A stretch of DNA of 64,000 bases from a virus: positions 1 through 64,000 of the IMG/VR virus record IMGVR_UViG_3300031510_000007; one strand, given 5' to 3'. Each line of letters opens with the position of its first letter. Within the stretch, counting starts at the first letter, position 1. The position numbers and the translations under genes were made by a program. Under the pieces are notes generated by a model. It saw only the letters and a list, made by a program, of their open reading frames with translations. It was not told the DNA's origin and ran no database searches. Positions 19,352 to 60,671 of this stretch are shown one piece after another.

Positions 19352-19619
19352 CAGCATATTCCTCTATTTTAATTTTTAACCTATTCTTACCTTTATGAAG
19401 ACGATGAAACGTTTCTTTTGGTATATATAATGTATTTGTGCTATTTATAAGAAATGGTAAGTCATTATCATACTGAAACATCCAACCATCGCCTTCGACG
19501 ACTTCTATGAGCCTGTCTTTCTTGTCACGATGCCATTCAAGCTCATGCTCATTAGCACTATCATCAAACTCACGAAACCAAATATCACCGACTCTCTCAC
19601 AATCTATATATGGCTTCAT
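19344..19619 (-). CDS. Cupin-like phage protein
   Basis: 91 residues. WHRDKKDRLIEVVEGDGWMF followed by FQYDNDLPF and IPKETFHRL form the two cupin motifs, with His and Glu/Gln metal-ligand candidates (H..D, E, H of FHRL). It may be an enzyme or a sensor; the substrate is unknown. The start overlaps the SNase stop (ATGA). Confidence 0.75.
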   Translation of the reverse strand: MKPYIDCERVGDIWFREFDDSANEHELEWHRDKKDRLIEVVEGDGWMFQYDNDLPFLINSTNTLYIPKETFHRLHKGKNRLKIKIEEYADG

Positions 19620-20050
19620 AATATTATGCCCTTCTCAATCAACAGTTCTCTATTTTTCAAATGCCGATTTTCGATGTCATCTTTTGACTGGCCAAAATAC
19701 GCAACGCCTATGTGATCACGAATCATTACTTTATGAAGAAACACCTCGCTATCTGTAAGACCGTCGTAAATTTTAAATTTTCCGAGTATCCTTCCAAACT
19801 TTCCTCTCGCATCATCCTTTTCTGTGACGAGCGTTTGGTAGGATTTGAGTGGTAAAAATTTCTTAACATAATCTTTAGCCAATAATCCATATTTTTTCTC
19901 AATCTTATCACGAGTTCTAGATTCGGGTGTGTCAATACCAAACAGTCTAACTCTTTGATTTGCTAAAACGATATCAAAGCCAAGGTCGATATCAACGTCA
20001 ACAGTATCGCCATCAATAATCTTGACCATCTTACATTTATATTCGTACAT
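19616..20050 (-). CDS. Staphylococcal nuclease-like (SNase) nuclease
   Basis: 144 residues. MVKIIDGDTVDVDIDLG, then VRLFGIDTPESR and RGKFGRILGKF correspond to the SNase calcium site (D21, D40, T41 equivalents) and catalytic Arg/Glu residues. No signal peptide, so it acts in the cytoplasm or is carried in the virion. SNases are frequent in marine phages and may help degrade host DNA. It directly follows the internal-protein cluster. Confidence 0.88.
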   Translation of the reverse strand: MYEYKCKMVKIIDGDTVDVDIDLGFDIVLANQRVRLFGIDTPESRTRDKIEKKYGLLAKDYVKKFLPLKSYQTLVTEKDDARGKFGRILGKFKIYDGLTDSEVFLHKVMIRDHIGVAYFGQSKDDIENRHLKNRELLIEKGIIL

Positions 20051-20053
20051 TTT

Positions 20054-20587
20054 TTACCACCATGAACTAGGATTGTCAACTTGCATACCAAGCATCTTAG
20101 CATATCGTGGTAGGCGACATGCCCAATACAATGCCTTTGTTTTATCGTTTCTCGTATCACATTTAAATCTAGCTGCAAATGACTTTCTAGCAGCAACGTT
20201 GTTAATTTTAACGTTAAGTCCTGTTGTGTCACCCCAAGTAACTTTCTTTATATTACCTGTAGATGGGTCTTTCACATACACATAGAACTTCTTTGGACCA
20301 CCACGCTTTGGCTTATTCAGTTCTGGCTCAGCTTCTTCGACAAGAGGACAGTCAAGAGGAATTTCTTCCCCTTGATAATCTGCCATCTCGCCGAGATTAG
20401 TATCTAGAATTTGAGCATCAAGCGGAGATACTTTCAGCGTACCGTCTTTATAGTAACGTCTTGCTTCACGAAAGAATTGAAAGTAACTTTCTGAAAGTGG
20501 ACGATACACATTATCTACGAATGAAACGTTATTCGCTTCCATAAACCACATAGCTTTCTCTACATCCACATATTGCTCAAATTTCAT
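20054..20587 (-). CDS. Phage protein with conserved C-terminal DNA-packaging/head-type module
   Basis: 177 residues. The C-terminal half, KKFYVYVKDPSTGNIKKVTW followed by AARKSFAARFKCD and KALYWACRLPRYAKMLG, is a module found in many marine T4-like proteins, some within head-core polyproteins. Its function is not known. The N terminus MKFEQYVDVEKAMWFMEANN has candidate gp21 sites (VDVE|K, FME|A), similar to capsid-targeting sequences. ATG 20587 shares the stop region of the 840-aa gene. Confidence 0.75.
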   Translation of the reverse strand: MKFEQYVDVEKAMWFMEANNVSFVDNVYRPLSESYFQFFREARRYYKDGTLKVSPLDAQILDTNLGEMADYQGEEIPLDCPLVEEAEPELNKPKRGGPKKFYVYVKDPSTGNIKKVTWGDTTGLNVKINNVAARKSFAARFKCDTRNDKTKALYWACRLPRYAKMLGMQVDNPSSWW

Positions 20588-23109
20588 CATTGTCCTGGAG
20601 TATCCTTTTTATACTTTGCGTTCAACTCATCTGTGCCTTGCTCGCCTGCACCATACTCTTCTTCTACCATTTTAGCAAGCGCTCTGGGGTTTAGGTTAAG
20701 ACTATGTTTACGGATAACTTCTGCTGCCCAATAACCAACACTACGAGACCTGTCTTTGTCTCTTTCTTTTTTCACTAATTCAACAGCTTTTTTGTATTTG
20801 CCTTTGTTTAGCATAATGCCTAATTTGGATTCATCTACATCTAAAGATTCTACAACAGACGGCACAAATCCATCCTCTGCTTGTTGTTCCGAAAATTCAA
20901 TAGTAAACATTGTATCGTTAATCATAGCATTAAACGATTCAATCACGCCCTCATGCTCAACTTCTTCATTACGAACTTTAGCTGCTTTTGCATCACGAAT
21001 CCATTTTTTAGCTGCTGGCCTTTTGGGTTCTTTCTTGACCCATACTGCCATTCTTTTATATATAGCCATTGCAGCAGCATCAAAACGAACTTTAGCTGCT
21101 TTTGCATTCACCTCTTCTGAAGTGTCAATTACGATGAAGTTTCTCCCGAATTGGGTTTGGAAGCTTCCAATGTTGCGCTGTACAGCATTCCACATCTTCT
21201 CAACTTCATCTTCTGGTAATGTGCGCTCACGGGCTTTGTTGCGAGCCTGTGCAGTTTTAAGGTCTGAGTTGACGAAAATCATTGCAGTATCATAACCGAG
21301 CAATTCTAATTCGTCAGCTTGTTGTTTAATCTTACTGTAATTTTTACCAGTGCCATCAATGATAAGTCCTAAACGACCATTCAATGCGAGTTTTTGTTTT
21401 AGCCCTGTAAGTGCTACCGCACGACTACGAACTTTTTGACCTTTAGGTGAGAAAATATCTTCAGGCGTTGCTTTCAACCCAACCTTCTTCAGTAGTGCTT
21501 CGAACGCATCATCAGAATTGACTAGCTTCAGCCCCAAAGCAGTCAATGCTGTTTTACCAACAACAAATGATTTACCTGATCCTGGACCACCTGCAAGAAA
21601 TACAGCTTTGAAGATGGCTGGATCATATACGCCTTCATCAAGATCAAATTCTTCATTACGAACTTTAGCGGCTAAGTCAGCATCAGCTTTACCCCATGTA
21701 CCCTTTCCTTTTGTAATGAAAGAGTTTACACGAGCATATGCCCACTGTTCTTGAAGAGCGCCTGGGCGATGACCAGTTCTCCAAGCAGCCATACCTCTAT
21801 CATAGACCTTCTTGAGAATGCCATAAGAAATGCCAGACTTCTCTGCTTTCTTCTCTAATCCTGCAAGAGATTTTTCTACAAGCACTTCTTCAAACATCTC
21901 GTTCAAAACGTCATCGAGCATATAGTCCACTTCTTCGATGAGGCCCTTTTCATCAAGTTCGACTGGTGCTGCTCTGTTGACTCTATAGCGCTTAAATCTC
22001 TGGTCGTGCTTGACTACACCTTCTTTACCAAACATTTTATGATAGCGCTTTGTGTGCTTTGAAGTCTTTGTAACAGCATCTACACTCTCTTCTGCTGGTC
22101 CTTCTCTAACCTTTGCGAGTCTTTCTTTCTCAGCTTTCTTTACAAGAGGTAGCAGTTTCTTAGCAATTTTACCAATCGCTGCCTTTTTCTTTTCAACTTG
22201 TTTATCAACTGACATTCTCTCTGACGGAGACAGTTGATCGTAATTGACGCCCTTTTTACCAGCAACTTTCTTTCTAATGATTTGAATTGCTTTTTTACGA
22301 GCACGAATTTTTAACTTCTCAGGTGATGCCATCTTCTTTGCAGCAATCCTGCGACCACGCATAATCTTAGATTTTGCTTTCTTAAAAGCCATCGCTCTCT
22401 TCTTACGAGCAGCAACACTGAGAACAGCTTCGAACATCAAGTCTTCGCCGAGTTCTAGTTCCATCTCTTCAGCAATCTTCATACCATCTCTGATTGCTTG
22501 AAATATCTTACTTGAAGAACTCTGTAGCTTCTTAGGAAGACCCGTTTTAAAGGCTCTCTCATCGCCGTCAGCAGCCGCAGCTCGCATCTTTGATGCTGAC
22601 ATACCTTCTGCGCCTTCAGCATCAGGGTCACGCTCACCAGCAGAGACGACTTCAATAGAGTCGAATGTGTATTCTTTACCGTTGTATTTGTTGAGTAGAG
22701 TTTCAAACTCTGCAACTCTATCAGAGCCAGCAACCATAATGAGTTTTGTATGACCCATGTCTTCAAGCTCTTTAGCAACTTGCATAATTGTCTTTGAGCG
22801 AGACTTTGTGACCATACTACCAAAGGCTTTCTTTGCGATCGCAATCTTAGTAACATATGGCAATGGATTCTTCTTCGAATCATATGTTTGCGAAAGATAG
22901 AGATGTGGCATCGCATCATTTTGTGCTGCGATTGCGTTGATCTTAGCAACGACTTTTTCGTGCCCAATCGTAGGAGGGTTCATTCTTCCAAAAGAGAATA
23001 CTGCTGTTGATGATACAGCTTCTTCTAACTTAGGATTAAGTTCAATCGTATTTTTTACGACAGCATCATTCTTCTTCTTGTCCTTTTTGGACTTCGTGTC
23101 GTCTTTCAT
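20587..23109 (-). CDS. Multidomain polyprotein: NMNAT-like, basic module, DUF5824-like, P-loop kinase
   Basis: 840 residues. 1-30: Lys-rich leader ending LNPKLEE|A. 35-205: nucleotidyltransferase of the NMNAT/cytidylyltransferase type (FSFGRMNPPTIGH, VAGSDR, SASKMR). About 228-380: very basic Lys/Arg region. About 410-480: DUF5824-like (ILKKVYDRGMAAWRTGHRPG, INSFITKG-like). 495-690: P-loop kinase or zeta-toxin-like domain with Walker A GGPGSGKS (507-514), NSDDAF and IIDGTGKN. 770-840: conserved tail ending GTDELNAKYKKDTPGQ. Module borders carry gp21-like sites: LEE|A (30), MFE|A (227), LDE|K (387), LDE|G (492). It is probably packaged and cleaved in the prohead (inference). Confidence 0.85.
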   Translation of the reverse strand: MKDDTKSKKDKKKNDAVVKNTIELNPKLEEAVSSTAVFSFGRMNPPTIGHEKVVAKINAIAAQNDAMPHLYLSQTYDSKKNPLPYVTKIAIAKKAFGSMVTKSRSKTIMQVAKELEDMGHTKLIMVAGSDRVAEFETLLNKYNGKEYTFDSIEVVSAGERDPDAEGAEGMSASKMRAAAADGDERAFKTGLPKKLQSSSSKIFQAIRDGMKIAEEMELELGEDLMFEAVLSVAARKKRAMAFKKAKSKIMRGRRIAAKKMASPEKLKIRARKKAIQIIRKKVAGKKGVNYDQLSPSERMSVDKQVEKKKAAIGKIAKKLLPLVKKAEKERLAKVREGPAEESVDAVTKTSKHTKRYHKMFGKEGVVKHDQRFKRYRVNRAAPVELDEKGLIEEVDYMLDDVLNEMFEEVLVEKSLAGLEKKAEKSGISYGILKKVYDRGMAAWRTGHRPGALQEQWAYARVNSFITKGKGTWGKADADLAAKVRNEEFDLDEGVYDPAIFKAVFLAGGPGSGKSFVVGKTALTALGLKLVNSDDAFEALLKKVGLKATPEDIFSPKGQKVRSRAVALTGLKQKLALNGRLGLIIDGTGKNYSKIKQQADELELLGYDTAMIFVNSDLKTAQARNKARERTLPEDEVEKMWNAVQRNIGSFQTQFGRNFIVIDTSEEVNAKAAKVRFDAAAMAIYKRMAVWVKKEPKRPAAKKWIRDAKAAKVRNEEVEHEGVIESFNAMINDTMFTIEFSEQQAEDGFVPSVVESLDVDESKLGIMLNKGKYKKAVELVKKERDKDRSRSVGYWAAEVIRKHSLNLNPRALAKMVEEEYGAGEQGTDELNAKYKKDTPGQ

Positions 23110-23185
23110 TTTTCTCTCCAGGTTTTCCGTAGACTTGACTGGTCTATGATATATTGATTATTTAGTAGAATACTACGTTTATTTA
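23110..23185. other. 76-bp intergenic leader of the 840-aa gene
   Basis: A+T-rich gap. On the minus strand it contains ACTAAATAATC and AATAAATAAAC, which resemble but do not match the late box TATAAATA, and CTGGAGAG just before the ATG as the Shine-Dalgarno sequence. No terminator is seen. Confidence 0.4.
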
Positions 23186-23635
23186 TTATAATTTTTTTCT
23201 CAAAATTCCAAGAGTTTTAAATCCATCCTCTTTAGCTAAAATTGAATCATATCCACACAACTCTAAGAATGTGGCAAAGTCTTTGCTGTCATACCAAAAC
23301 TTATCAACTGATTGAACTTTATCTCCAAAGGCTTTTTTTAATTTGATATAAATTGGTTTCAATTTAGCTAAATCTGTATTTTTAGATTTTTCTTTCATAA
23401 TCAAATTTAACAATTCTGTTATTTTCATTCTTTTTTCAGAATTTCCCACATCAAAAGTATTAGTAGGATTATAATCAATTGAATCTACTTCTGCATTTTT
23501 GCGATAATAGGCATACCCATCAGCAACCTTTTTATCGTATGAGAACCAAACTATTGGCTTCTTACCGTAAAGAGTATCACCTTTATCAAATCCTCTATAT
23601 AATTTTTTTTCATAAAATTGTTTGAAGCTTTTCAT
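23186..23635 (-). CDS. ADP-ribosyltransferase-like protein with capsid-targeting N-terminus
   Basis: 149 residues from ATG 23635, overlapping the previous stop (ATGA). MKSFKQFYE|KK closely resembles the packaging signal of T4 internal proteins (MKTYQEFIAE|A). Then LYRGFDKGDTLYGKKP, VWFSYDKKVADGYAYY and LELCGYDSILAKEDG follow. The YRG, WFS...A..YA and GYDSI elements fit the R-S-E ADP-ribosyltransferase fold, but the catalytic Glu is not secure. T4 packages the ART Alt in its head, a precedent. The gene is more A+T-rich than the capsid genes. Confidence 0.6.
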   Translation of the reverse strand: MKSFKQFYEKKLYRGFDKGDTLYGKKPIVWFSYDKKVADGYAYYRKNAEVDSIDYNPTNTFDVGNSEKRMKITELLNLIMKEKSKNTDLAKLKPIYIKLKKAFGDKVQSVDKFWYDSKDFATFLELCGYDSILAKEDGFKTLGILRKKL

Positions 23636-24861
23636 TTTTGCCAACCCTTTTGTACATCAGCAGAAAAGTTAGCATGGCTAAACTGAAGTCTATCAACTAG
23701 TTTTACAGCAGTGCCTTTCAACTTATCTACAGCAACGAAGCCTTCTTGACCTGTGACTTTGTATCCATCTTTCGTAGAGAGTAGTGTGTTGATTGTAGCT
23801 GCTTGGTCCATCTTCTTGATGATGATATCTTTGGCTTGAACAATCTTGTCCATTAGGTCGAAGATGAGTTTAATTTTTCTTTTATCAGTCTTTGTAAAGT
23901 AGTCCATTACAGATGTTTGACGACCACGAACCCCAGACTTGCCCTTCTCTGTTTTACGCTTACCTTCTTCTTTTCCAAAGTAATCCATAAGATACTGCAT
24001 GAGGTCTTTCGTCAACTTCGTTGTATTACCCATTCTCTCACCGACACGAACTTTTGTGTTTAAGAATGTTTTTGTTCTCATAAGAAGTTCATCATTATCT
24101 GAGATGCCGTTGAGTGTAGCACGGTCAATCTTATTGAAAATCTTACCAGCGTCTGCTAGGATTGTTGTAATCGTAGCAGTCTCTTTTTCAGTCATCATTG
24201 CTTTGCCAGAAACGTCACGATATGCAGCATCAGTAGAGAATATACTAGATGTGTCTTTTAGATTTGATGCAATCTGCTTCGCAAAGCTAGCTTGCATTGT
24301 TTCAAATGAGTCACCCGTGTAAGTAGTATGCCATACGACGCCGATGCTGGCTCGTGCGATTTGGCGACCCAATGGAGTGTCTTTTGGTACAGCGTAAACA
24401 ATGGTATTAGGATGAAAAGTAATATGCTTGACACCATTATAGGTAATGTCTTTCGTGTCACCTTTAGTAAAGAGCAGGTCGCCTTGAATGACGCCTGTGA
24501 TACCAAGTTTCGGAAACTCTTGTAACGCAGTCTTGAGTTTATCTGCCAAATCCCCAGATGTATCGGCATCAACATCAGCTTCTGTTTTATATACCTTTGG
24601 GTTCTTGTTAAAGATACCCTTCTTGGCAACGAAAAATTTGTCATCATTTGGATCAATCCCTGCAAAAATGGCGGGCGAACCGTCCCATTTAACTGTAGCA
24701 TCAACTGTAGTCTTCGCATCGCCTGAGAGCATATCACGAAGTGAGCGTAAAAAATTAATCGCTTCACGGGCGCCATCCACACCGCCATTGAGAACGTTGT
24801 CCTCAATATGCTCCATGTGTGTATTCTTTTGTTCTATGAGGTAGGAGTTAAAGTTTTTCAT
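23632..24861 (-). CDS. DUF6267-like protein with KxDG nucleotidyltransferase motif
   Basis: 409 residues. The start is ATG 24861 (MKNFNSYLIE|QKNTHMEHIE), again like an internal-protein signal. The core ATVKWDGSPAIFAG has K58-x-D-G, the ligase/capping motif I, and FVAKKGIFNKNP plus VIQGDLLF (motif IV-like) follow. The family is recalled as DUF6267 and has been called RNA-ligase-like in some annotations. Activity is unproven. It may seal or modify nucleic acid after injection. Confidence 0.75.
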   Translation of the reverse strand: MKNFNSYLIEQKNTHMEHIEDNVLNGGVDGAREAINFLRSLRDMLSGDAKTTVDATVKWDGSPAIFAGIDPNDDKFFVAKKGIFNKNPKVYKTEADVDADTSGDLADKLKTALQEFPKLGITGVIQGDLLFTKGDTKDITYNGVKHITFHPNTIVYAVPKDTPLGRQIARASIGVVWHTTYTGDSFETMQASFAKQIASNLKDTSSIFSTDAAYRDVSGKAMMTEKETATITTILADAGKIFNKIDRATLNGISDNDELLMRTKTFLNTKVRVGERMGNTTKLTKDLMQYLMDYFGKEEGKRKTEKGKSGVRGRQTSVMDYFTKTDKRKIKLIFDLMDKIVQAKDIIIKKMDQAATINTLLSTKDGYKVTGQEGFVAVDKLKGTAVKLVDRLQFSHANFSADVQKGWQK

Positions 24862-24871
24862 ATTACGTTCC

Positions 24872-25987
24872 CTACAACTTAATCTTAAATCCAACACGGG
24901 TTCCAGCAGCAGATGGACCACCATATGTTGATAATCTAAATTCTTTAAATAGAGGTAATTCGTCAACAATTTTTTTATTGATTTTTAATATATTATTTTT
25001 CGAATTTACATTATATAATTCAAAAGTATCATTTGACCTATTGTGAATTACAAAATAGTCATCACCACCTTTTATAAAATGTGATAATATCATTTTATGA
25101 ATTTTTATCATTAATCCACTACTTGTAGTTTTAAGTGCAGATGGTAGTTTGCCAGATTTACCCACCCCCTTATCTCCAGCATATCCAATAGTAGGGTCAA
25201 GACTTTTATAATATTCCATTATAGCATGAAATGCACCACCTTCATTACCACGTTTTTTACGAATTTTATTCCACTCATTACCTCCTTTTTTAAACACATT
25301 TGTAAGTTCTGAAACACTCTTAATATATAACTCAGATGTACTATCCAATTCTACCTTACCCGCTTCCGACTTTTTGTTTTGTTTTCTTCTTGCAGTAATA
25401 TCAAAAAAAGTGATTTCATTTTTTCTAGCATTAGTTCCCTTAATCTCAAATTGAATTCTTTTTCCACCAATAGTCATAACCAAATCTGGTTTTGTTGAAC
25501 CACTAGGTGCAACAGAGAATTCTGATTTAAATTCTATCCCTTCCTTCAAACACAGTTCTTTTATGTATGCAGCGCATTCTTCTTGAGTTTTTGTTCCAGC
25601 GGCAACTCTTTTTTGACTCTTACCGCCCGGTTTTTCAACATGAGCTATCATGATATACCCATCAAAAGGTTTATCATAAGATTTTAATGATACCTTTGCA
25701 AACCATGATCTTCCTATAAGTTTATGAAGAGTTGCTGGAGCAACAAACCAAACAGTAGTGTTTGCAGAAATTGTTTTAATTACTTCCCCATTTTTGTCAA
25801 CTAAATCTGTTTGTTTTAATGTTGGAAACCCTTCTGGATATGCATAATCCTCACCAGCTACTGGTGGATAAATAGTTCTTTCTCCTGATTGGGGTTTATC
25901 ACCTCCCACTCCGTTAGGAAAATTAGCCGGCCCAAATGATGCTTCAGAGAGCGTGTTCTTATTAATAAACTGTTTTAATCCAAGCAT
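24872..25987 (-). CDS. PD-(D/E)XK nuclease-like protein with capsid-targeting N-terminus
   Basis: 371 residues. The N terminus MLGLKQFINKNTLSE|ASFG has a gp21-like site at residue 15. Residues 166-184, KPDLVMTIGGKRIQFEIKG, are a textbook PD-x12-EIK nuclease core. The remaining C-terminal part (NEWNKIRKKRGNEGGAFHAI, SGLMIKIHKMILSHFIKGGD) is not recognised. The gene is strikingly A+T-rich with different codon use from its neighbours, suggesting recent acquisition. It is first in the late-promoter transcript, and could cleave host DNA on entry. Confidence 0.72.
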   Translation of the reverse strand: MLGLKQFINKNTLSEASFGPANFPNGVGGDKPQSGERTIYPPVAGEDYAYPEGFPTLKQTDLVDKNGEVIKTISANTTVWFVAPATLHKLIGRSWFAKVSLKSYDKPFDGYIMIAHVEKPGGKSQKRVAAGTKTQEECAAYIKELCLKEGIEFKSEFSVAPSGSTKPDLVMTIGGKRIQFEIKGTNARKNEITFFDITARRKQNKKSEAGKVELDSTSELYIKSVSELTNVFKKGGNEWNKIRKKRGNEGGAFHAIMEYYKSLDPTIGYAGDKGVGKSGKLPSALKTTSSGLMIKIHKMILSHFIKGGDDYFVIHNRSNDTFELYNVNSKNNILKINKKIVDELPLFKEFRLSTYGGPSAAGTRVGFKIKL

Positions 25988-26024
25988 GGCATGTCCTTAC
26001 AATTCTCATTTCGCTCTGTTTCGT

Positions 26025-26258
26025 TTATTTATAAGAACATATCTCTTTGCCCACGGACTCTGCTTCTCGAAAAGTCTTACGAGAGAACAATGCGACCAGC
26101 TTATCATTCTTATAGACGAACGTATGAAAGACTTTTGGTTTAGACCATATCATCGTTTTGAAAGTTTGTACCCAATTTAGATCATATTTCTTCATCATCT
26201 CAGCATCTTTATACCATTTGAGATTGTATTTCGCTTGTTCGATTCTATATGTTTTCAT
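26025..26258 (-). CDS. Hypothetical protein (77 aa)
   Basis: MKTYRIEQAKYNLKWYKDAE, then WVQTFKTMIWSKPKVFHTFV and a basic C terminus. It is a small soluble protein with many aromatic and Lys residues. ATG 26258 overlaps the stop of the 55-aa gene (ATGA). The end of this gene contains the late promoter of the internal-protein cluster. Confidence 0.65.
   Translation of the reverse strand: MKTYRIEQAKYNLKWYKDAEMMKKYDLNWVQTFKTMIWSKPKVFHTFVYKNDKLVALFSRKTFREAESVGKEICSYK
26026..26033 (-). promoter_or_regulatory. T4-type late promoter TATAAATA for the internal-protein cluster
   Basis: A perfect late box on the minus strand, 39 bp before the ATG of the PD-(D/E)XK gene, with AAGGAC as the ribosome site in the leader. 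gp55 (50619-51185) would recognise it. Confidence 0.75.
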
Positions 26259-26756: not shown

Positions 26757-26796
26757 GTCGAATGACATAATGTTAAATTATATTAGGATTGATGAT

Positions 26797-27342
26797 ATGA
26801 ATAGATTTATCATTGCTTTGTTCGCTTTGATTTTCGCATCTACGAGCGTTTATGCTCAAACAGAAGACAAAATAACGACTGATAATACCAGTAAGATCGA
26901 CTCTAAGACTACGGTCACGTCTCCGCCACCGTCTGCTATCTCTCCTACTATCAATTCGTCTAACTCTGATTTGTGTACAATCGGTGTAGCGGGAGCAGTG
27001 CAGACTCAGATTCTAGGTCTCTCTGCTGGTAAGACTGTGCGTGATATGAACTGCGAAAAACTGAAGAATGCTAAGACGCTATATGATATGGGTATGAAAG
27101 TTGCAGCAGTGTCTGTGATGTGTCAAGACAAACGTGTTTTTGATGCTATGATGCACGCCGGAACACCTTGTCCATATGATGGCTTGATTGGCGCTGAAGC
27201 TAAAGCAGGCTGGCAAAATGATGAAGAAAAAGCACCGAAAGAAGAAAATACAGTTAGGAGTGTAATGGATGATGATAGCACGATTACCCTTATTGGTGGC
27301 GGCATTGTTCTTGGTTTGCTTACCATTCTCAGCATACTCTGA
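26797..27342 (+). CDS. Secreted protein with C-terminal membrane helix
   Basis: 181 residues. The signal peptide MNRFIIALFALIFASTSVYA is followed by a Ser/Thr/Pro-rich linker. A conserved region follows: LCTIGVAGAVQTQILGLSAG, MNCEKLKNAKTLYDMGMKVA, VMCQDKRVFDAMMHAGTPCP. Four Cys could form disulfides. The C terminus GGGIVLGLLTILSIL is a membrane helix. The family is recalled in marine phages without known function. ATG 26797 has AGGA upstream. First gene of the cassette. Confidence 0.75.
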   Translation: MNRFIIALFALIFASTSVYAQTEDKITTDNTSKIDSKTTVTSPPPSAISPTINSSNSDLCTIGVAGAVQTQILGLSAGKTVRDMNCEKLKNAKTLYDMGMKVAAVSVMCQDKRVFDAMMHAGTPCPYDGLIGAEAKAGWQNDEEKAPKEENTVRSVMDDDSTITLIGGGIVLGLLTILSIL

Positions 27343-28123
27343 AACTAAATCTGCAACTTCAAGGAACGCAGCAGATAATGTGACAGTATGGGATATGGAT
27401 CTGGTTCTACCACCTGAAACTGGTCTAATCGTAAATCAAGTGCGTTACAATTATACAGTAAATAAAATCCGTGAAGATGCTTTCTCGGTGACAATTCAGA
27501 ACAAAAGAGTTGGCGGTGGTGATAAGAATGTTTTTGAAAGCACTGATGATTGGTCTGGCGTAGAAGGTCAGACGATTGTCAAAAATCTAGCTGTCGCTAA
27601 TATACCGAGAATACTCTGGGGCGAAGGCAGTCTCAATACAACGGGCGAAGGTGAAGTCGTAGATGCTAATGTTCGTTATAGCTATACGTTTGATAATTGT
27701 GTTAATCCACTTACAAATCCATTATGTCCTCAACCGGTTGAAAATAGGGAATTACCACTGATTATAAATCCCTTTGACTCAGAAGAGGTGCAAAACGCTC
27801 TTGCACAAACAGTTGATATTGAAGAAGATGATGAGCGCAAAGCCGATGAAGAAAATTCACTTGAAAATAAAGACAGAAGGCGACAACTAGCACGATCAAA
27901 CAACCCCTTAATGACTAATGCTGCTCAACTTGCTGCATTATTTGAACAAATGGCTTTGGTTCCTAAGTTTGAAGAATATTATGCTGTCGAACTACAAGGC
28001 GGCACCTATAAAGAAACTGTTGAATTAAAAGATGCTACATTACCTGACAATAGAAAAGCAATGAGAAGTTTATCTAAAGATCAGAAGTTTAATAAGATAA
28101 TTAGGTCACAATACGAAAAATAG
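27269..28123 (+). CDS. Secreted hypothetical protein (284 aa)
   Basis: Starts MMIARLPLLVAALFLVCLPF with a signal peptide ending SAYS. The mature part contains VWDMDLVLPPETGLIVNQVR, ILWGEGSLNTTGEGEV, VRYSYTFDNCVNPLTNPLCP and an acidic, helical C-terminal half (VDIEEDDERKADEEN). It overlaps the first gene by 74 bp out of frame, with AGGAG 8 bases upstream. A related module (WG(E/D)GS, YSYxxD) is recalled in other marine phages; function is unknown. Confidence 0.75.
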   Translation: MMIARLPLLVAALFLVCLPFSAYSETKSATSRNAADNVTVWDMDLVLPPETGLIVNQVRYNYTVNKIREDAFSVTIQNKRVGGGDKNVFESTDDWSGVEGQTIVKNLAVANIPRILWGEGSLNTTGEGEVVDANVRYSYTFDNCVNPLTNPLCPQPVENRELPLIINPFDSEEVQNALAQTVDIEEDDERKADEENSLENKDRRRQLARSNNPLMTNAAQLAALFEQMALVPKFEEYYAVELQGGTYKETVELKDATLPDNRKAMRSLSKDQKFNKIIRSQYEK

Positions 28124-28136
28124 AGAGGATAAAAAT

Positions 28137-28655
28137 ATGCTCAATAAAGTTCAAATGAGATATTTTTTGTTATCGGCGGTTGCAGCAGTATTTGCAACGA
28201 CTGCTTTGGCAAACGAAGACGCTCCCATCACAGGTACAGTAGAATCTAAATGCGTAATCTTCACCGAAACGCAAGGTATCTATGGCACTCCACTAGCTAG
28301 TAGGCTTTCTACTGCTGTGGCAGATGGTGGCGTACAACCAATCATTCGTTATGATGTAGCGCTTGCTGATGCATTTCTTGGAAAGATTACCTTTCCTAGC
28401 GCATTTTCAAGTTCTCCATCGCTATCTGATACTCAAACGTTTACGGGCAACGTAGAGGTTCACAGTGTATCTGATGCTTTGATGGCAGATTATGACACAG
28501 ATAAAATTACGTTTAACAACACTCACGAATATGATTTGACTATTGCTGGTACAGTACGATTCAAAATTTCTTCACAGGTCGACTACGGCGTCAGTAAAGC
28601 GTTTCCTGCTGGTACGTATACATCACTCGTAAATGCGGAGTGCATCGCAAAGTAA
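28137..28655 (+). CDS. Secreted pilin/adhesin-like protein
   Basis: 172 residues with a signal peptide ending TTALA|NEDAP. The mature protein has ITGTVESKCVI at its start and NAECIAK at its end, a Cys pair across a beta-rich chain (TFTGNVEVHSVSDALM, YDLTIAGTVRFKISSQ). This pattern resembles fimbrial or spore-coat-U type subunits. It lies next to a chaperone-like protein, which fits a chaperone-subunit pair (inference). Confidence 0.7.
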   Translation: MLNKVQMRYFLLSAVAAVFATTALANEDAPITGTVESKCVIFTETQGIYGTPLASRLSTAVADGGVQPIIRYDVALADAFLGKITFPSAFSSSPSLSDTQTFTGNVEVHSVSDALMADYDTDKITFNNTHEYDLTIAGTVRFKISSQVDYGVSKAFPAGTYTSLVNAECIAK

Positions 28656-28667
28656 GGTAGATATGTT

Positions 28668-29039
28668 ATGAAATATGTAGTTATAGCAGCAGCGCTATTG
28701 TTATCGTTTAGCGCTGCTGCTCATGAAATGACGCCAGCTTATATTAAAGTTAAACCTTCGGGCGTGCCCAATGTTTATCTCACCGAGATAAAAATGCTTA
28801 ATAGAAGAAGTGATGTATCATACTATGAAATAACCGCCCATGATGCTGACTGGAAAAAATTACCCTTTGCTTCTTTTGAAAGGGTATTTAAACTTCCATA
28901 CACAAAAAGAAAGACTATTAAGATATATTTTAAAAAGAAAACTGTAGACAAGCTTGTCTATGTATGTACGAAATCGAAGATAATTAAAGGAAAAGGAACG
29001 CTCGTCTCATCTCGAATATGTTCTAAATTTAACCGATGA
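28668..29039 (+). CDS. Periplasmic, PapD N-domain-like protein
   Basis: 123 residues. The signal peptide MKYVVIAAALLLSFSAAAH is followed by an Ig-like beta domain: MTPAYIKVKPSGVPNVYLTE, LNRRSDVSYYEITAHDADWK, KTIKIYFKKKTVDKLVYVCT. It has the look of the first domain of a fimbrial chaperone, very basic and single-domain (PapD-like chaperones normally have two, about 230 aa). Cys pair CTK...CSK near the end. Next gene overlaps (ATGA). Confidence 0.65.
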   Translation: MKYVVIAAALLLSFSAAAHEMTPAYIKVKPSGVPNVYLTEIKMLNRRSDVSYYEITAHDADWKKLPFASFERVFKLPYTKRKTIKIYFKKKTVDKLVYVCTKSKIIKGKGTLVSSRICSKFNR

Positions 29040-29443
29040 AATATATTGCTTTTTTGATGATACTGTTGATGAGCACCTCGGCATATGCTCAATCAACTAG
29101 TTTGAATTTAAGTATTCCGAGCGCATCTAACTCGTTTGGAAGCGACAGATTTCGTGCAGGCGATCTAGACTGTCAGAACTCAATAGGTTCTGCTACAAAC
29201 TTCGAATTTGGCGTCACTGGTGTACGAAAGGGAGAGAATACTAATCCTCTCAGTTCAAATTTTGGCAAATCGTCACCAGATGTAGGCGTATATGCTAGAA
29301 TCGTGATACCGCTAGGCGCAAGACCAAAGGCAAGAATTAACTGTGATACGCTATATCAATTAGAACTATCAAAGAAACGATTAGAAATTCTTAAACTTCA
29401 AAAAGAACTCAGTGAACTGAAAGCATTGCAGTTTGAGAATTAG
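29036..29443 (+). CDS. Secreted protein with C-terminal coiled coil
   Basis: 135 residues. The signal peptide MKYIAFLMILLMSTSAYAQS is followed by SIPSASNSFGSDRFRAGDLD, FEFGVTGV and VYARIVIPLGARPKARINCD, then a leucine-rich helix LELSKKRLEILKLQKELSEL. The IVIPLG strand plus helix suggests an outer-membrane-associated or secretion accessory protein. It is recalled in marine phages, function unknown. Overlaps the upstream gene by 4 bp. Confidence 0.7.
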   Translation: MKYIAFLMILLMSTSAYAQSTSLNLSIPSASNSFGSDRFRAGDLDCQNSIGSATNFEFGVTGVRKGENTNPLSSNFGKSSPDVGVYARIVIPLGARPKARINCDTLYQLELSKKRLEILKLQKELSELKALQFEN

Positions 29444-29452
29444 GAGAGCGTA

Positions 29453-29932
29453 ATGGCCGAAGTAGAAATTGCTGGAATAAACCTCAAAGGGGGCAAAATC
29501 ATGGTCCTCTTTACAGTTCTATCTACTCTCGGTGGTGGGCTGTGGGGCGGCTTCGAGTTTTATTCAGACTATAGAGCGATGAAAGAAGTTGTTGAGAACA
29601 TCGACATTCAGGAAATCAAAGCAGGCAATGCTCTTGTGATTACCAAGTTAGATGAAGCAATCGATTACACCAGAGATATTAAACAGGGACTCAAAGCCGA
29701 TATCATTCGTACAGAGAAAATAACAGACGATACGAGCCGTCGTATGAAAGACCTTGAAAGAGGTATCGATGTTCGTATGAGAGAATTGTCAAAGCTTTCT
29801 CGTGAGTCTGAAAAGGATGTTAGAAATACAATGCGTGAAACAGAAGAACGCATAGACCTCAAGATGGAAAAGCTGGATACTAGTCTGAGAGAGTCGCTTC
29901 AAGAAGCACTTGATAATCCTCTAACAAAATAA
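29453..29932 (+). CDS. Membrane-anchored coiled-coil protein
   Basis: 159 residues. One transmembrane helix near residues 17-35 (IMVLFTVLSTLGGGLWGGF) is followed by a long charged coiled coil (DDTSRRMKDLERGIDVRMRE, EKDVRNTMRETEERIDLKME). No signal cleavage site. Last gene of the plus-strand cassette, converging on the metallopeptidase gene 7 bp away. Holin- or scaffold-like roles are possible. Confidence 0.7.
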   Translation: MAEVEIAGINLKGGKIMVLFTVLSTLGGGLWGGFEFYSDYRAMKEVVENIDIQEIKAGNALVITKLDEAIDYTRDIKQGLKADIIRTEKITDDTSRRMKDLERGIDVRMRELSKLSRESEKDVRNTMRETEERIDLKMEKLDTSLRESLQEALDNPLTK

Positions 29933-55896: not shown

Positions 55897-57183
55897 TTAC
55901 ATGATGTTAGTGATTGCAACTCGGCGATAGTATGTGTTTTGATCGCCAGCAGCAGGACTTGTGTTGTCGATAGCGCCTGCACCATTTGAGGTAGCAAATG
56001 GGTTAGCAACCATGCCGTAACGAGTCTTGAAGCCAATCTTAGGTTGGAAGCTACTCTCACCAACCGCACGAACCATTTGCAATGGAACATATGGGCAGTA
56101 GAAGATGCCAGCATCGAATGCGCTAGAACCCTTGTAGCCAACAATCATGTAGTTAGCGCCTGCATATGGGTCGATGTAGACTTTCATGCGGCCATTAATG
56201 ACACCAGCGAATGTGTTGCCTGTGTCATCTACATTTAGCTTAGATGCGAGAGCAGGAGCATAGTCGAGGACGCCTGCCATCTGAAGTGCAGAAGCAACAT
56301 CAGAAGAACAAACAACAACGTTGCCTTTACCACGACGGGTCTGCTTTGCGATTTCATTAGCTTCACGTTCAATCTGGAACATGAGACCTTTGAACTTTTC
56401 AACACTCCAACGACCGTTAGCATCAACGTCTAGGTTGAATGTACCAGCAGCGGCGGTGTTTGTTTGAGCGCCAGCTTTGGCTGTGTGATAGATTGTGCGA
56501 ACAACTTCACGATTGATTTCTGCAAGAATTTCAGCAGAAAGAATGTTAGCAAGTTCTGTTTCAGCGTCAAGACCATGAATAGCCTTTAAATCTTGTGCTA
56601 GTTCAGTAGTGTACTCTGCTTTGAGCGCACGAGACTTGGCAGTAACAGTAACCTTGTCGATTTCGAAGCCCATCTGAGCATAAGCAGCTTCAGCTTCCAT
56701 TGTAGCCGTAGCAACACCAACACCAGTCGTTTCGGATCCAGCACCGAGAGCATTAGCGTGTGTACCTGCGCCAGAGAAGTCTGTGTCAGCTTCGCTGTGC
56801 AGCGCTTCAGTTGTAACAGTTGTCGTGTTAGCATACATGGACTTCATGGCAAAGATAAGCCCAGAAGGACCGGTCATTGGCTGAACACCACAAATGTCAT
56901 ATGCCATCAAATTAGGCATAGAACGACGAACGAGGCTAATCAACACAGGATCGTAAGTGTCGGTAGAAGCAACGCCACCAGAAGCGCCATCACCAATAGA
57001 GTTGGCAGGTGCGGCTTCCATCAGTAGGCTATTAGGTGACCAAGCAGCGCTTTCTCTTAGAGCCTTTTCGGTGTTCTCTAGGACAATAGCAGTAACTGCT
57101 CTTTTGTGATTATCTGTGATAGCTTCGAGGTCTGGATGCTCCAGAATAGGACGCCATTTGTTGTTTAGTTCTTCATTTAACAT
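55897..57183 (-). CDS. 23: Major capsid protein (T4 gp23-like)
   Basis: 428 residues. LIFAMKSMYANTTTVTTEAL, AEYTTELAQDLKAIHGLDAE and RRGKGNVVVCSSDVASALQM are gp23 landmarks. A predicted gp21 site SLLME|AAPANS near residue 55 matches the LxE|A consensus, as in T4 gp23 maturation. Late promoter at 57222-57229; strong terminator after the gene. Confidence 0.96.
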   Translation of the reverse strand: MLNEELNNKWRPILEHPDLEAITDNHKRAVTAIVLENTEKALRESAAWSPNSLLMEAAPANSIGDGASGGVASTDTYDPVLISLVRRSMPNLMAYDICGVQPMTGPSGLIFAMKSMYANTTTVTTEALHSEADTDFSGAGTHANALGAGSETTGVGVATATMEAEAAYAQMGFEIDKVTVTAKSRALKAEYTTELAQDLKAIHGLDAETELANILSAEILAEINREVVRTIYHTAKAGAQTNTAAAGTFNLDVDANGRWSVEKFKGLMFQIEREANEIAKQTRRGKGNVVVCSSDVASALQMAGVLDYAPALASKLNVDDTGNTFAGVINGRMKVYIDPYAGANYMIVGYKGSSAFDAGIFYCPYVPLQMVRAVGESSFQPKIGFKTRYGMVANPFATSNGAGAIDNTSPAAGDQNTYYRRVAITNIM

Positions 57184-58176: not shown

Positions 58177-58845
58177 TTATTTTGAAATATTATTCAAGAA
58201 TTTTGCAAATATTTTGAACTTTTGTTCTTCGAGTTTACGAGGAGAGAGTTTTTTAGTCTCTGCTACAATCTGTTCAACCATTTGTTCACGCATCCAGTTA
58301 CCAGAAGCGATATCATAAAACCATTCTGACCCTTCCATAATACCCTTTACGAAAGCATCAGGAGCAGATGGGTCAGCGACGATATCGCCAGCAGTAGCGA
58401 GCATGAAATCGCCCTGTACTTCCATAATACCTTTCCCTGTTTGCTTAATTGACCCCATGCCACGAGATGATACGCCAAGTGTTGCACCTTCGTCCATAAG
58501 ATTCTTTACTACCTTACCCATTGGAGTATCCATAATCTTTGCTTTACCAACAAAGTTTGAGCCCTCTTGATGTAAGTCAGTAATCATATGTGACACTCGC
58601 TCAAGGTTGATGGTTGGTCCATCAGGATGTCCGAGTTCACCAAAAGCTCTTTTTTTCTCTACAAATTCTTTATTATATCTCTTCACTTCTTTCGCAATAA
58701 CTTCAGAAGGATAGACACGCCCATTACGATTTTTGAGGTCGCCTTGCATGAAGACGCCTTCAATGAAATAGTTTTTTGGCTTACCTTCTTCGGCAGCTTC
58801 TGTGATGTATTTAACATCATCGTTTATTTCGCAGATTAATTTCAT
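58177..58845 (-). CDS. 21: Prohead protease (T4 gp21-like)
   Basis: 222 residues. The S21-type core has RAFGELGHPDGPTINLERVS (His), AKIMDTPMGKVV and GATLGVSSRGMG (Ser). It cleaves scaffold, capsid and internal proteins at (L/I)xE|(A/G/S)-type sites, so it is the expected processing enzyme for the sites noted at 20.6-25.9 kb and 59.2-60.7 kb. Confidence 0.94.
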   Translation of the reverse strand: MKLICEINDDVKYITEAAEEGKPKNYFIEGVFMQGDLKNRNGRVYPSEVIAKEVKRYNKEFVEKKRAFGELGHPDGPTINLERVSHMITDLHQEGSNFVGKAKIMDTPMGKVVKNLMDEGATLGVSSRGMGSIKQTGKGIMEVQGDFMLATAGDIVADPSAPDAFVKGIMEGSEWFYDIASGNWMREQMVEQIVAETKKLSPRKLEEQKFKIFAKFLNNISK

Positions 58846-59156: not shown

Positions 59157-60671
59157 TTACATTGCTTGCTTGGCAAAGGCAAGAATCTCACTATTAGATT
59201 TCTTGTCTTGCATAAACTTAGCGAGCATTGTCTTTGTGTTTGCAGGGTTCAACGACTTATATAGATTATTGAGCGCTGCTGCATCATCTTTAGAAACCTT
59301 TACCGTACTACCATCTTTAAGTTTCATGTCGGTAGCGCTGAAATTAACTGCTTCATCAAGGTCAACGGATTCGTATACTTCGTATGTCTTACCAGCAACT
59401 ACGAAAGTTTTATCACCCTTTTCTTTAGCTGCTTTTAGCGCCATTCCAAATGCGTTACCTTCCTTCATCATCTTATTAATCTCAGCACCCTTCATATTGT
59501 GCTTTGTAATAAGTTTTGTAACTGCACTTTGAGTTACAAAAGGAATGTCCGCTTTTACCAACTTAATAAGCATCGCTTTATTGTCAGCAAACTTATTCAT
59601 AATGGCAGATAGCTTCTTAGCGTTATCTAAACTGATTTTCTTATCACGCATTGGCTCATATGCTTTTTTGAGTTTAGCAATACCTGCTGCGCTTTCCTCT
59701 AACTCTTCATTTGGGCCATAGCCTTTAGGAGTTACATCTTTAGTGCGTGACGCAACATCTTTTTTTGATTTACCCTTTGCCATTCTTTTAGCAGCATCTG
59801 GGTTTAAATTACCTTTCTTATCAAGAAACTTTGCAAGATGAGGCGGCAACCCATTTGATGCTTCATCAAGGTCAACTTCTTCAATTACATTTTTAGGAAA
59901 CGATTTTTCAATATATTTCACTACATCTTGAGTAGACCTACTATCCATTTTTGCAACAATCTTAAACTTACTACCAGATTTAGATGCAATTGTTTGGCCG
60001 CCCATTCCAGTTTTCTCTAACTTCTTTCCATCAGTTGATAACATTTTACCATTCATAGATTTACCACTATAGAACGCATCTACAACTTGTTTATCTTTTG
60101 GATTTAATGCTTCATCAAGGTCAACTTCTTCTGGAACATATTCATTCTTCTGCATCATTTTCATTGCCCCAGTTGCAAGTTTGACAATAGGAAGTTTTTC
60201 CATCTTCTTCTTGGTTGCGTCATTTACCTTGTCATAGATTTGCGAAATAGCAGATGCAGTGAAAGAATCGACCATAACACCATCAATCTTTGCAGCAGAT
60301 TTCTTGGAGGCAATCTCTTTTACCTTGTCGATAACACTCTCATTACAAATTTGTTTTGCAAACATTACGGCTTTCCAGCTTTCGCCATAAGTAGCTCGTA
60401 ATGATTCTTCATTCATTTCGCATTCACAATCTTCACATCCACAGTTTTCACATTTACACTTAGTAATATTTTCTTCATAAACCGCAGCGTCTTTACCTTC
60501 TTCACTATCAGCAATACGTTTCTTCTTACCAGGAGACTTTTTTGTACCCTTTAAAGTTTCTGCATCGTTTAGCGGATGGTCAACGATACCAACGACGTGC
60601 TTGTCTTTGAAACGTTTTTCGCCAGCAGCTTTTGGCTCCAGCAGTTCTTGTAAATCTTTAAAGGATAGCAT
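59157..60671 (-). CDS. Modular head-locus protein with repeated VDLDEA gp21-like sites
   Basis: 504 residues from ATG 60671. N terminus MLSFKDLQELLE|PKA resembles a capsid-targeting sequence. A metal-binding-like motif with six Cys, KCKCENCGCEDCEC, is at about 71-84. VDLDE|A occurs three times (187, 270, 440) plus LEE|S near 326, splitting the chain into helical, Lys-rich modules of about 60-170 residues. It occupies the place of T4 gene 68/67 between gp20 and gp21. I propose a core protein cleaved into several internal peptides. Confidence 0.78.
   Translation of the reverse strand: MLSFKDLQELLEPKAAGEKRFKDKHVVGIVDHPLNDAETLKGTKKSPGKKKRIADSEEGKDAAVYEENITKCKCENCGCEDCECEMNEESLRATYGESWKAVMFAKQICNESVIDKVKEIASKKSAAKIDGVMVDSFTASAISQIYDKVNDATKKKMEKLPIVKLATGAMKMMQKNEYVPEEVDLDEALNPKDKQVVDAFYSGKSMNGKMLSTDGKKLEKTGMGGQTIASKSGSKFKIVAKMDSRSTQDVVKYIEKSFPKNVIEEVDLDEASNGLPPHLAKFLDKKGNLNPDAAKRMAKGKSKKDVASRTKDVTPKGYGPNEELEESAAGIAKLKKAYEPMRDKKISLDNAKKLSAIMNKFADNKAMLIKLVKADIPFVTQSAVTKLITKHNMKGAEINKMMKEGNAFGMALKAAKEKGDKTFVVAGKTYEVYESVDLDEAVNFSATDMKLKDGSTVKVSKDDAAALNNLYKSLNPANTKTMLAKFMQDKKSNSEILAFAKQAM
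59351..60125 (-). repeat. Three copies of a 17-bp linker repeat
   Basis: gcttcatcaaggtcaac occurs exactly at 59351-59367, 59860-59876 and 60109-60125. On the minus strand it encodes VDLDEA. A diverged copy (one mismatch in the core) lies near 21635 in the 840-aa gene. Confidence 0.85.

What the first reader, a model, noticed from the sequence alone, without database searches (positions are those of the whole stretch)
20587..26033. Late cluster of four proteins with T4-like capsid-targeting N termini: a candidate injected effector set
Seen: the 371-, 409-, 149- and 840-aa proteins each have a short N-terminal segment ending in an LxE-like site. These are KQFINKNTLSE|A, MKNFNSYLIE|Q, MKSFKQFYE|K and LNPKLEE|A. 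The first three resemble the packaging signal of T4 internal protein III (MKTYQEFIAE|A). The genes follow a perfect late box at 26026-26033, and the gp21 protease is encoded in the window. Inference: these are head-packaged enzymes (nuclease, ligase-like, ADP-ribosyltransferase-like, NMNAT/kinase) delivered with the DNA.
Basis: partly seen in the sequence, partly recalled or inferred. Interest (0 to 1): 0.9.

Follow-up and report, generated by a model that had tools for sequence, protein, structure and literature searches.

The report
Phage head-packaged enzymes with swappable cargo
A marine T4-like phage appears to tag a set of enzymes with a short "put me in the head" peptide so they are packaged beside its DNA and delivered at infection; related phages keep the tag but swap the enzyme, and published mass spectrometry of cyanophage virions finds proteins with this tag in the particles.

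Summary
The window is a T4-like marine phage with its own gp21 protease and gp23. The 409-aa protein (DUF6267) carries a full T4-type capsid-targeting sequence (CTS): residues 4, 7, 8 and 10, which set targeting and cleavage in T4 IPIII, are the constrained leader positions in 33 homologues. The 371-aa protein has an invariant PD-(D/E)xK nuclease signature and an IPI-like leader with LxE|A shifted downstream. Homologues replace the leader but mostly keep [LIF]xE at the junction. The slot before DUF6267 is a cargo-swap site; one close relative keeps late promoter and leader DNA but has a different, restriction-enzyme-like body. The 149-aa protein fits only the targeting positions. The 840-aa protein has an atypical leader with a conserved LxE. 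Published virion proteomes fit: in S-CREM2, 5 of 6 proteins with the full signature were virion-detected (p=0.003), and homologues of the 840-aa N-terminal domain were found in virions of at least four cyanophages. Packaging in this phage, cleavage, injection and enzyme activities are inferred. New variant of a known kind.

The parts
26026..26033 (-). T4-type late promoter box TATAAATA, 39 nt upstream of the 371-aa start
   Evidence: also conserved in L009 in front of a different cargo
24872..25987 (-). 371-aa cargo-slot protein, PD-(D/E)xK nuclease-like, not found in bacterial genomes searched
   Evidence: P167 D168 ... E181-x-K183 invariant in 8 homologues; viral homologues only
25943..25987 (-). 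leader of the 371-aa protein, MLGLKQFINKNTLSE|A (L4, F7; LSE|A displaced to 13-15 as in T4 IPI)
   Evidence: leader replaced wholesale in homologues with [LIF]xE mostly kept at the junction; T4 IPI for comparison
23632..24861 (-). 409-aa DUF6267 protein, possible ligase-like nucleotidyltransferase
   Evidence: PF19782 E 8.9e-107; KWDG 58-61 and EGxVA 373-377 invariant
24832..24861 (-). leader of the 409-aa protein, MKNFNSYLIE|Q, canonical CTS (F4, Y7, L8, E10)
   Evidence: E10 invariant in 33 homologues; first 16 residues disordered in the model
23186..23635 (-). 149-aa protein, ADP-ribosyltransferase-like below cut-off; leader MKSFKQFYE|K has F4 and F7 but no LxE (LYE in two relatives)
20587..23109 (-). 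840-aa protein: cytidylyltransferase/NMNAT-like domain (36-217), DUF5824 (421-478), P-loop kinase (501-654)
   Evidence: homologues detected in cyanophage virions (PMC3037559, PMC10665884, PMC9602691, PMC9146016)
23020..23109 (-). 30-residue Lys-rich leader of the 840-aa protein ending LEE|A; atypical
   Evidence: LEE|A, LEE|D, LKE|A in close relatives; canonical leaders in others; none in L016, L029, L034
20054..20590 (-).
   Evidence: relatives MKKFKQYIDE and MKSFRNYIKE
58177..58845 (-). gp21-type prohead protease
   Evidence: Peptidase_S77 E 1.5e-36; phrog_207 E 7.7e-79
55897..57183 (-). gp23 major capsid protein with a likely gp21 site LLME|AAP at residues 54-57
   Evidence: T4 site LTE|A at 63-66

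Best explanation
This is a late operon of virion cargo proteins. A short N-terminal leader of the T4 capsid-targeting type docks each protein on the scaffold core of the prohead; the phage's gp21 then cuts after LxE, and the enzyme stays inside with the DNA and is delivered at infection. The gene before DUF6267 is a cargo-swap slot: late promoter, ribosome site and leader stay while the body (here a PD-(D/E)xK nuclease) changes between phages. DUF6267 (perhaps a ligase-like nucleotidyltransferase) and the NMNAT/kinase protein are the conserved part. Shown: leaders, their conservation, the swap, the late box, the protease gene. Shown by others in relatives: presence of homologues in virions. 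Inferred: packaging in this phage, cleavage, injection, function. Most likely function (about 35%): immediate-early host takeover or counter-defence, the variable nuclease acting on host or competing DNA and the conserved pair restoring NAD or nucleic-acid ends. The confidence below is for the packaging mechanism, not the function.
For: Constrained positions 4, 7, 8, 10 in DUF6267 leaders match T4 IPIII genetics (PMC9026906). Leader kept, body swapped, with DNA-level support; leader swapped, body kept. Enrichment around DUF6267 in seven genomes: 12/209 against 16/1297, p 1.5e-4. S-CREM2 virion MS: 5 of 6 signature carriers detected, p 0.003; matrix top 5 has 4 virion proteins. S-SCSM1: NMNAT and neighbours annotated as virion proteins. 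Cytidylyltransferase in S-SM1 and S-SZBM1 virions. Late box and gp21 present.
Against: No proteome of this phage. Cited MS does not show cleaved N termini, and the S-CREM2 authors allow contamination. DUF6267 itself is not shown in any virion; most cyanophage DUF6267 lack the leader. 149 and 840 miss canonical positions. With positions 4 and 7 alone the S-CREM2 test is not significant (p 0.12). T4 internal proteins score poorly with the DUF6267-trained matrix.
Confidence: 0.78

Rival explanations
1. Only part of the set is cargo: 409 and 371 are packaged by CTS, while 149 and 840 are ordinary late proteins whose LxE sites are incidental.
For: 149 and 840 score at background with the matrix; LxE is common near N termini; some close relatives of 840 have no leader.
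Against: 149 has F4 and F7; LxE is kept in the 840 leader of close relatives; homologues of its first domain are in cyanophage virions.
Confidence: 0.35
2. The proteins are packaged but act during head assembly or DNA packaging and are not injected effectors.
For: The T4 CTS works by affinity for the core (PMC9026906); detection in virions does not prove injection; nuclease or ligase-like activities could tidy DNA.
Against: The slot body changes between close relatives, which fits conflict with hosts better than assembly; T4 internal proteins are injected counter-defence factors (PMC3012670, PMC9391042).
Confidence: 0.15
3. The shared N terminus is a chance or start-site bias (AT-rich genes often begin MK plus a hydrophobic residue), and virion detection in relatives is contamination by abundant late proteins.
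For: MK starts are common; loose LxE matches are common; the S-CREM2 authors name contamination as a possibility.
Against: Matrix hits exceed internal segments (14 against 1.8) and cluster near DUF6267; the first two residues after Met were not scored; the motif predicts which S-CREM2 proteins are detected; the leader is kept across a body swap.
Confidence: 0.06

Closest known systems
T4 internal proteins IPI, IPII, IPIII and Alt with capsid-targeting sequences (PMC9026906, PMC3012670)
   Same: 10-19 residue N-terminal leader; constrained residues 4, 7, 8, 10; gp21-type protease; late box; variable cargo behind a shared leader, as in T-even phages
   Different: Cargo is large and enzyme-like, in a different genome place (between the primase-helicase and ribonucleotide reductase genes in relatives), with a conserved DUF6267-NMNAT pair and a swap slot of nuclease-like bodies; packaging untested here
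Cyanophage virion-associated NMNAT/cytidylyltransferase (S-SM1, S-CREM2, S-SCSM1, S-SZBM1)
   Same: Homologous domain; gene next to DUF6267 in S-SM1 and S-SZBM1; leaders of CTS type
   Different: The window's version is fused to DUF5824 and a kinase and has an atypical leader; the papers read did not name a targeting signal
Polyvalent proteins (PMC5512222)
   Same: Phage enzymes thought to be injected, including ART types
   Different: Here mostly separate polypeptides with individual leaders; ART match below cut-off

Membership tests
T4-type CTS cargo (internal head proteins) | Aromatic or hydrophobic residues at 4 and 7 (targeting) | tested here: met
   409, 371, 149 and 178 meet it, 840 does not; DUF6267 family
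T4-type CTS cargo (internal head proteins) | LxE/IxE cleavage site ending the leader | tested here: met
   409 (LIE), 371 (LSE|A), 840 (LEE|A); not met for 149 (FYE)
T4-type CTS cargo (internal head proteins) | gp21-type prohead protease in the genome | tested here: met
   PF03420 E 1.5e-36
T4-type CTS cargo (internal head proteins) | Late expression | tested here: met
   Late box only, no expression data
T4-type CTS cargo (internal head proteins) | Presence in the virion, cleavage by gp21, injection | not testable with these tools
   Homologues in virions per PMC3037559, PMC10665884, PMC9602691, PMC9146016; cleavage and injection not shown
PD-(D/E)xK nuclease (371 aa) | Invariant PD...ExK | tested here: met
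   P167 D168, E181, K183
PD-(D/E)xK nuclease (371 aa) | Nuclease fold | tested here: inconclusive
   Model pLDDT 55; no Pfam match
Covalent nucleotidyltransferase/ligase (409 aa) | KxDG and EGxV-type motifs | tested here: met
   K58-G61, E373-A377, K387 invariant
Covalent nucleotidyltransferase/ligase (409 aa) | Ligase fold | tested here: inconclusive
   No significant PDB match; RNA ligases only at E 0.5-4
ART-PolyVal (149 aa) | Match to the Pfam profile over its cut-off | tested here: not met
   15.6 bits against 31.2, also in relatives

The most novel reading that the evidence does not exclude
Kyanoviridae-like marine phages run a general cargo-loading system: late promoter plus T4-type leader as a fixed cassette into which unrelated effectors, notably restriction-enzyme-like nucleases, are swapped, so the sequence rule predicts injected effectors across uncultured marine phages.
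Probability: 0.55. Interest if true: 0.82.

Novelty: new variant of a known kind. Interest (0 to 1): 0.72.

Why it matters
Cyanophage virion proteomes list NMNAT, kinase, SAM hydrolase and Cas9-like proteins, and one of these papers leaves open whether they are cargo or contaminants. A T4-type leader on these proteins, with the same four positions that T4 genetics defined, makes that question directly testable and gives a rule for finding injected effectors in the many related uncultured phages. The swap slot is a place to look for new counter-defence or host-attack enzymes.

Tried and rejected
LxE alone as evidence: rejected, too common. Homologues of the 371- and 149-aa proteins in annotated phage records: none by tblastn. 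Bacterial homologues of the 371 family: none found in genome contigs. Solved-structure sequence hits for 409 and 840: none significant. PDB fold search for DUF6267: nothing significant. AF2 model of 371: too poor to use. Reuse of the long RPRxESxxHVDR leader on other bodies: seen only on the 371 family. T4 internal proteins score poorly with the DUF6267-trained matrix, so that matrix is clade-specific. The leader table was partly selected by the motif itself and is not used as evidence. I first took S-SCSM1 gp282 for DUF6267; the profile search showed phrog_1462 instead.

Full report
Setting. The window is most of a 64.6-kb virus record with T4-like head genes: gp20, gp21 (Peptidase_S77, E 1.5e-36), gp22 and gp23 (E 1.8e-139). 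The four ORFs exist as described on the minus strand, preceded by an exact TATAAATA at 26026-26033, 39 nt from the start codon, the same spacing as in front of gp23.

Chance. An LxE site near an N-terminus is weak evidence: 30 of 95 window genes have one. I therefore used three sharper tests. First, a weight matrix trained only on DUF6267 leaders (the window's own among them): only the 409-aa protein stands far out in the window (17.8), and as a DUF6267 member it is not an independent case; 371 is marginal (5.2), 149 weak, 840 negative. Over seven genomes the matrix finds 14 leaders at score 10 or more against 1.8 expected from internal segments (four of the 14 are DUF6267 proteins themselves). 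Second, a pattern written from T4 IPII/III is enriched within 10 kb of DUF6267, counting other genes only: 12/209 against 16/1297, p 1.5e-4, and 12 against a mean of 1.3 for shuffled N termini (distance to the gene centre was used to leave DUF6267 out, and in C48C1, G003, and the window the listed hits include it only as printed rows). Third, the T4 genetics. Mullaney and Black's amber-suppression work, as reviewed in PMC9026906, places targeting at residues 4 and 7 and processing at 8 and 10 of the IPIII leader. In 33 DUF6267 sequences, chosen by homology and not by motif, position 4 is F/L in 33, 7 is Y/F in 27, 8 is L/I/V in 33, and 10 is E in 33, while positions 3, 5, 6 and 9 vary. Four of five genes in 20054-25987 satisfy 4 and 7 against 2 of 90 elsewhere; the residue classes were fixed after seeing DUF6267.

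Leader modularity. In the 371-aa family the conserved body starts at about residue 16. Leaders before it are MLGLKQFINKNTLSE, MIKFRGWLTE, MQKFKRWLNE, MKSFKGYLTE, or a 30-residue MSLQKYVRQLRPRTESHISHVDRVQDLLITE; most end [LIF]xE, with exceptions among the most distant members. The slot before DUF6267 holds about 20 body clusters in some 60 loci, many of them with this leader type. L009, whose DUF6267 is 92% identical to the window's, keeps the upstream DNA, TATAAATA and the leader start MLGLKQ, then carries a different body that hits a type II restriction-enzyme model, E 3.9e-10. This is the clearest case of cargo swap with leader kept.

Virion evidence from others. S-SM1: the cytidylyltransferase T4-GC190 was detected in purified virions (PMC3037559); its gene follows DUF6267 (T4-GC71) and begins MKKFSAFLNE|A. 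S-CREM2 (PMC10665884, Table 3): SAM hydrolase MKDFDSFLEE, gp13 MKDLHSFLTE, APH-like kinase MKRFDAFLTE, cytidylyltransferase MKNFSSFLTE and a Cas9-like protein with LRFASFMAE|A were all virion-detected. Over 218 CDS, 5 of 6 carriers of the four-position signature are virion-detected against 46 of 212 others, p 0.003; with positions 4 and 7 only, p 0.12. The DUF6267 matrix places 4 virion proteins in its top 5. S-SCSM1: the NMNAT (MKSFLQFLKE) and the two genes on either side of it are annotated as virion proteins; gp282 belongs to phrog_1462, also the family of slot protein L037. S-SZBM1: the cytidylyltransferase (MRFRQFIIE|A) and, by its length, the protein downstream were detected; the neighbouring DUF6267, which has no leader there, is not named by ORF number in the paper's main text (its ORF number is my inference). 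S-CREM2 gp87, a leaderless DUF6267 relative, is also not listed. These negatives fit but are weak.

The proteins. 409: canonical CTS; invariant KWDG, QGD, EGxVA and K387 suggest a covalent nucleotidyltransferase, but fold searches gave only phage relatives as significant matches, with RNA ligases next at E 0.5 to 4. 371: PD...ExK invariant; IPI-like leader. 149: F4 and F7 present, no LxE; ART-PolyVal below cut-off. 840: NMNAT-like, DUF5824 and P-loop kinase; atypical leader with conserved LxE; canonical leaders in more distant relatives and none in L016, L029 and L034. A fifth candidate is the 178-aa protein.

Mechanism. Shown: leaders, constraint, swap, late box, protease gene. Shown by others for homologues: presence in virions. 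Inferred: docking on the core, gp21 cut, injection, enzyme activities. T4 internal proteins with this leader are injected and counter host defence (IPI against GmrSD, IPIII needed on strain ECOR17; PMC3012670, PMC9391042), so counter-defence or host takeover is the best guess, about 35%.

Novelty. The held library has one paper with both 'capsid targeting sequence' and 'cyanophage', and there 'cyanophage' appears only in a reference title. The variable-cargo principle is known from T-even phages, so I file this as a new variant of a known kind. The library lacks most subscription papers, so prior reports cannot be excluded.

Limits. Gene starts in the genome-wide tests are from a simple ribosome-site heuristic of mine, not a trained gene finder; some starts are wrong. 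Viral contig loci are related to one another, so counts of leaders are not independent events.

Noticed in passing
window 26770-29932 (+): An island of about six plus-strand genes, four or five with signal-peptide-like N termini, inside an otherwise minus-strand genome.
   Followed up: no
window 59157-60671 (-): A 504-aa protein beginning MLSFKDLQELLE|P between the gp67/68-like gene and gp21; no Pfam match and a weak PHROG match.
   Followed up: partly
L165:7704-10313 (S-CREM2 gp12): A Cas9-like protein detected in S-CREM2 virions has LRFASFMAE|A about 25 residues from its annotated start, a possible CTS behind a misplaced start codon.
   Followed up: partly
L005 (S-PM2): In one S-PM2 record DUF6267 and the cytidylyltransferase appear fused in one polypeptide, while most cyanophage DUF6267 lack a leader.
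   Followed up: partly
window 19616-20050 (-): Staphylococcal-nuclease homologue (PF00565, E 5e-9) directly downstream of the cluster, without a leader motif.
   Followed up: no
L022:57-662: The DUF6267-upstream slot of one contig holds a HAD-phosphatase-like protein with leader MLSFRSFITE|Q.
   Followed up: partly
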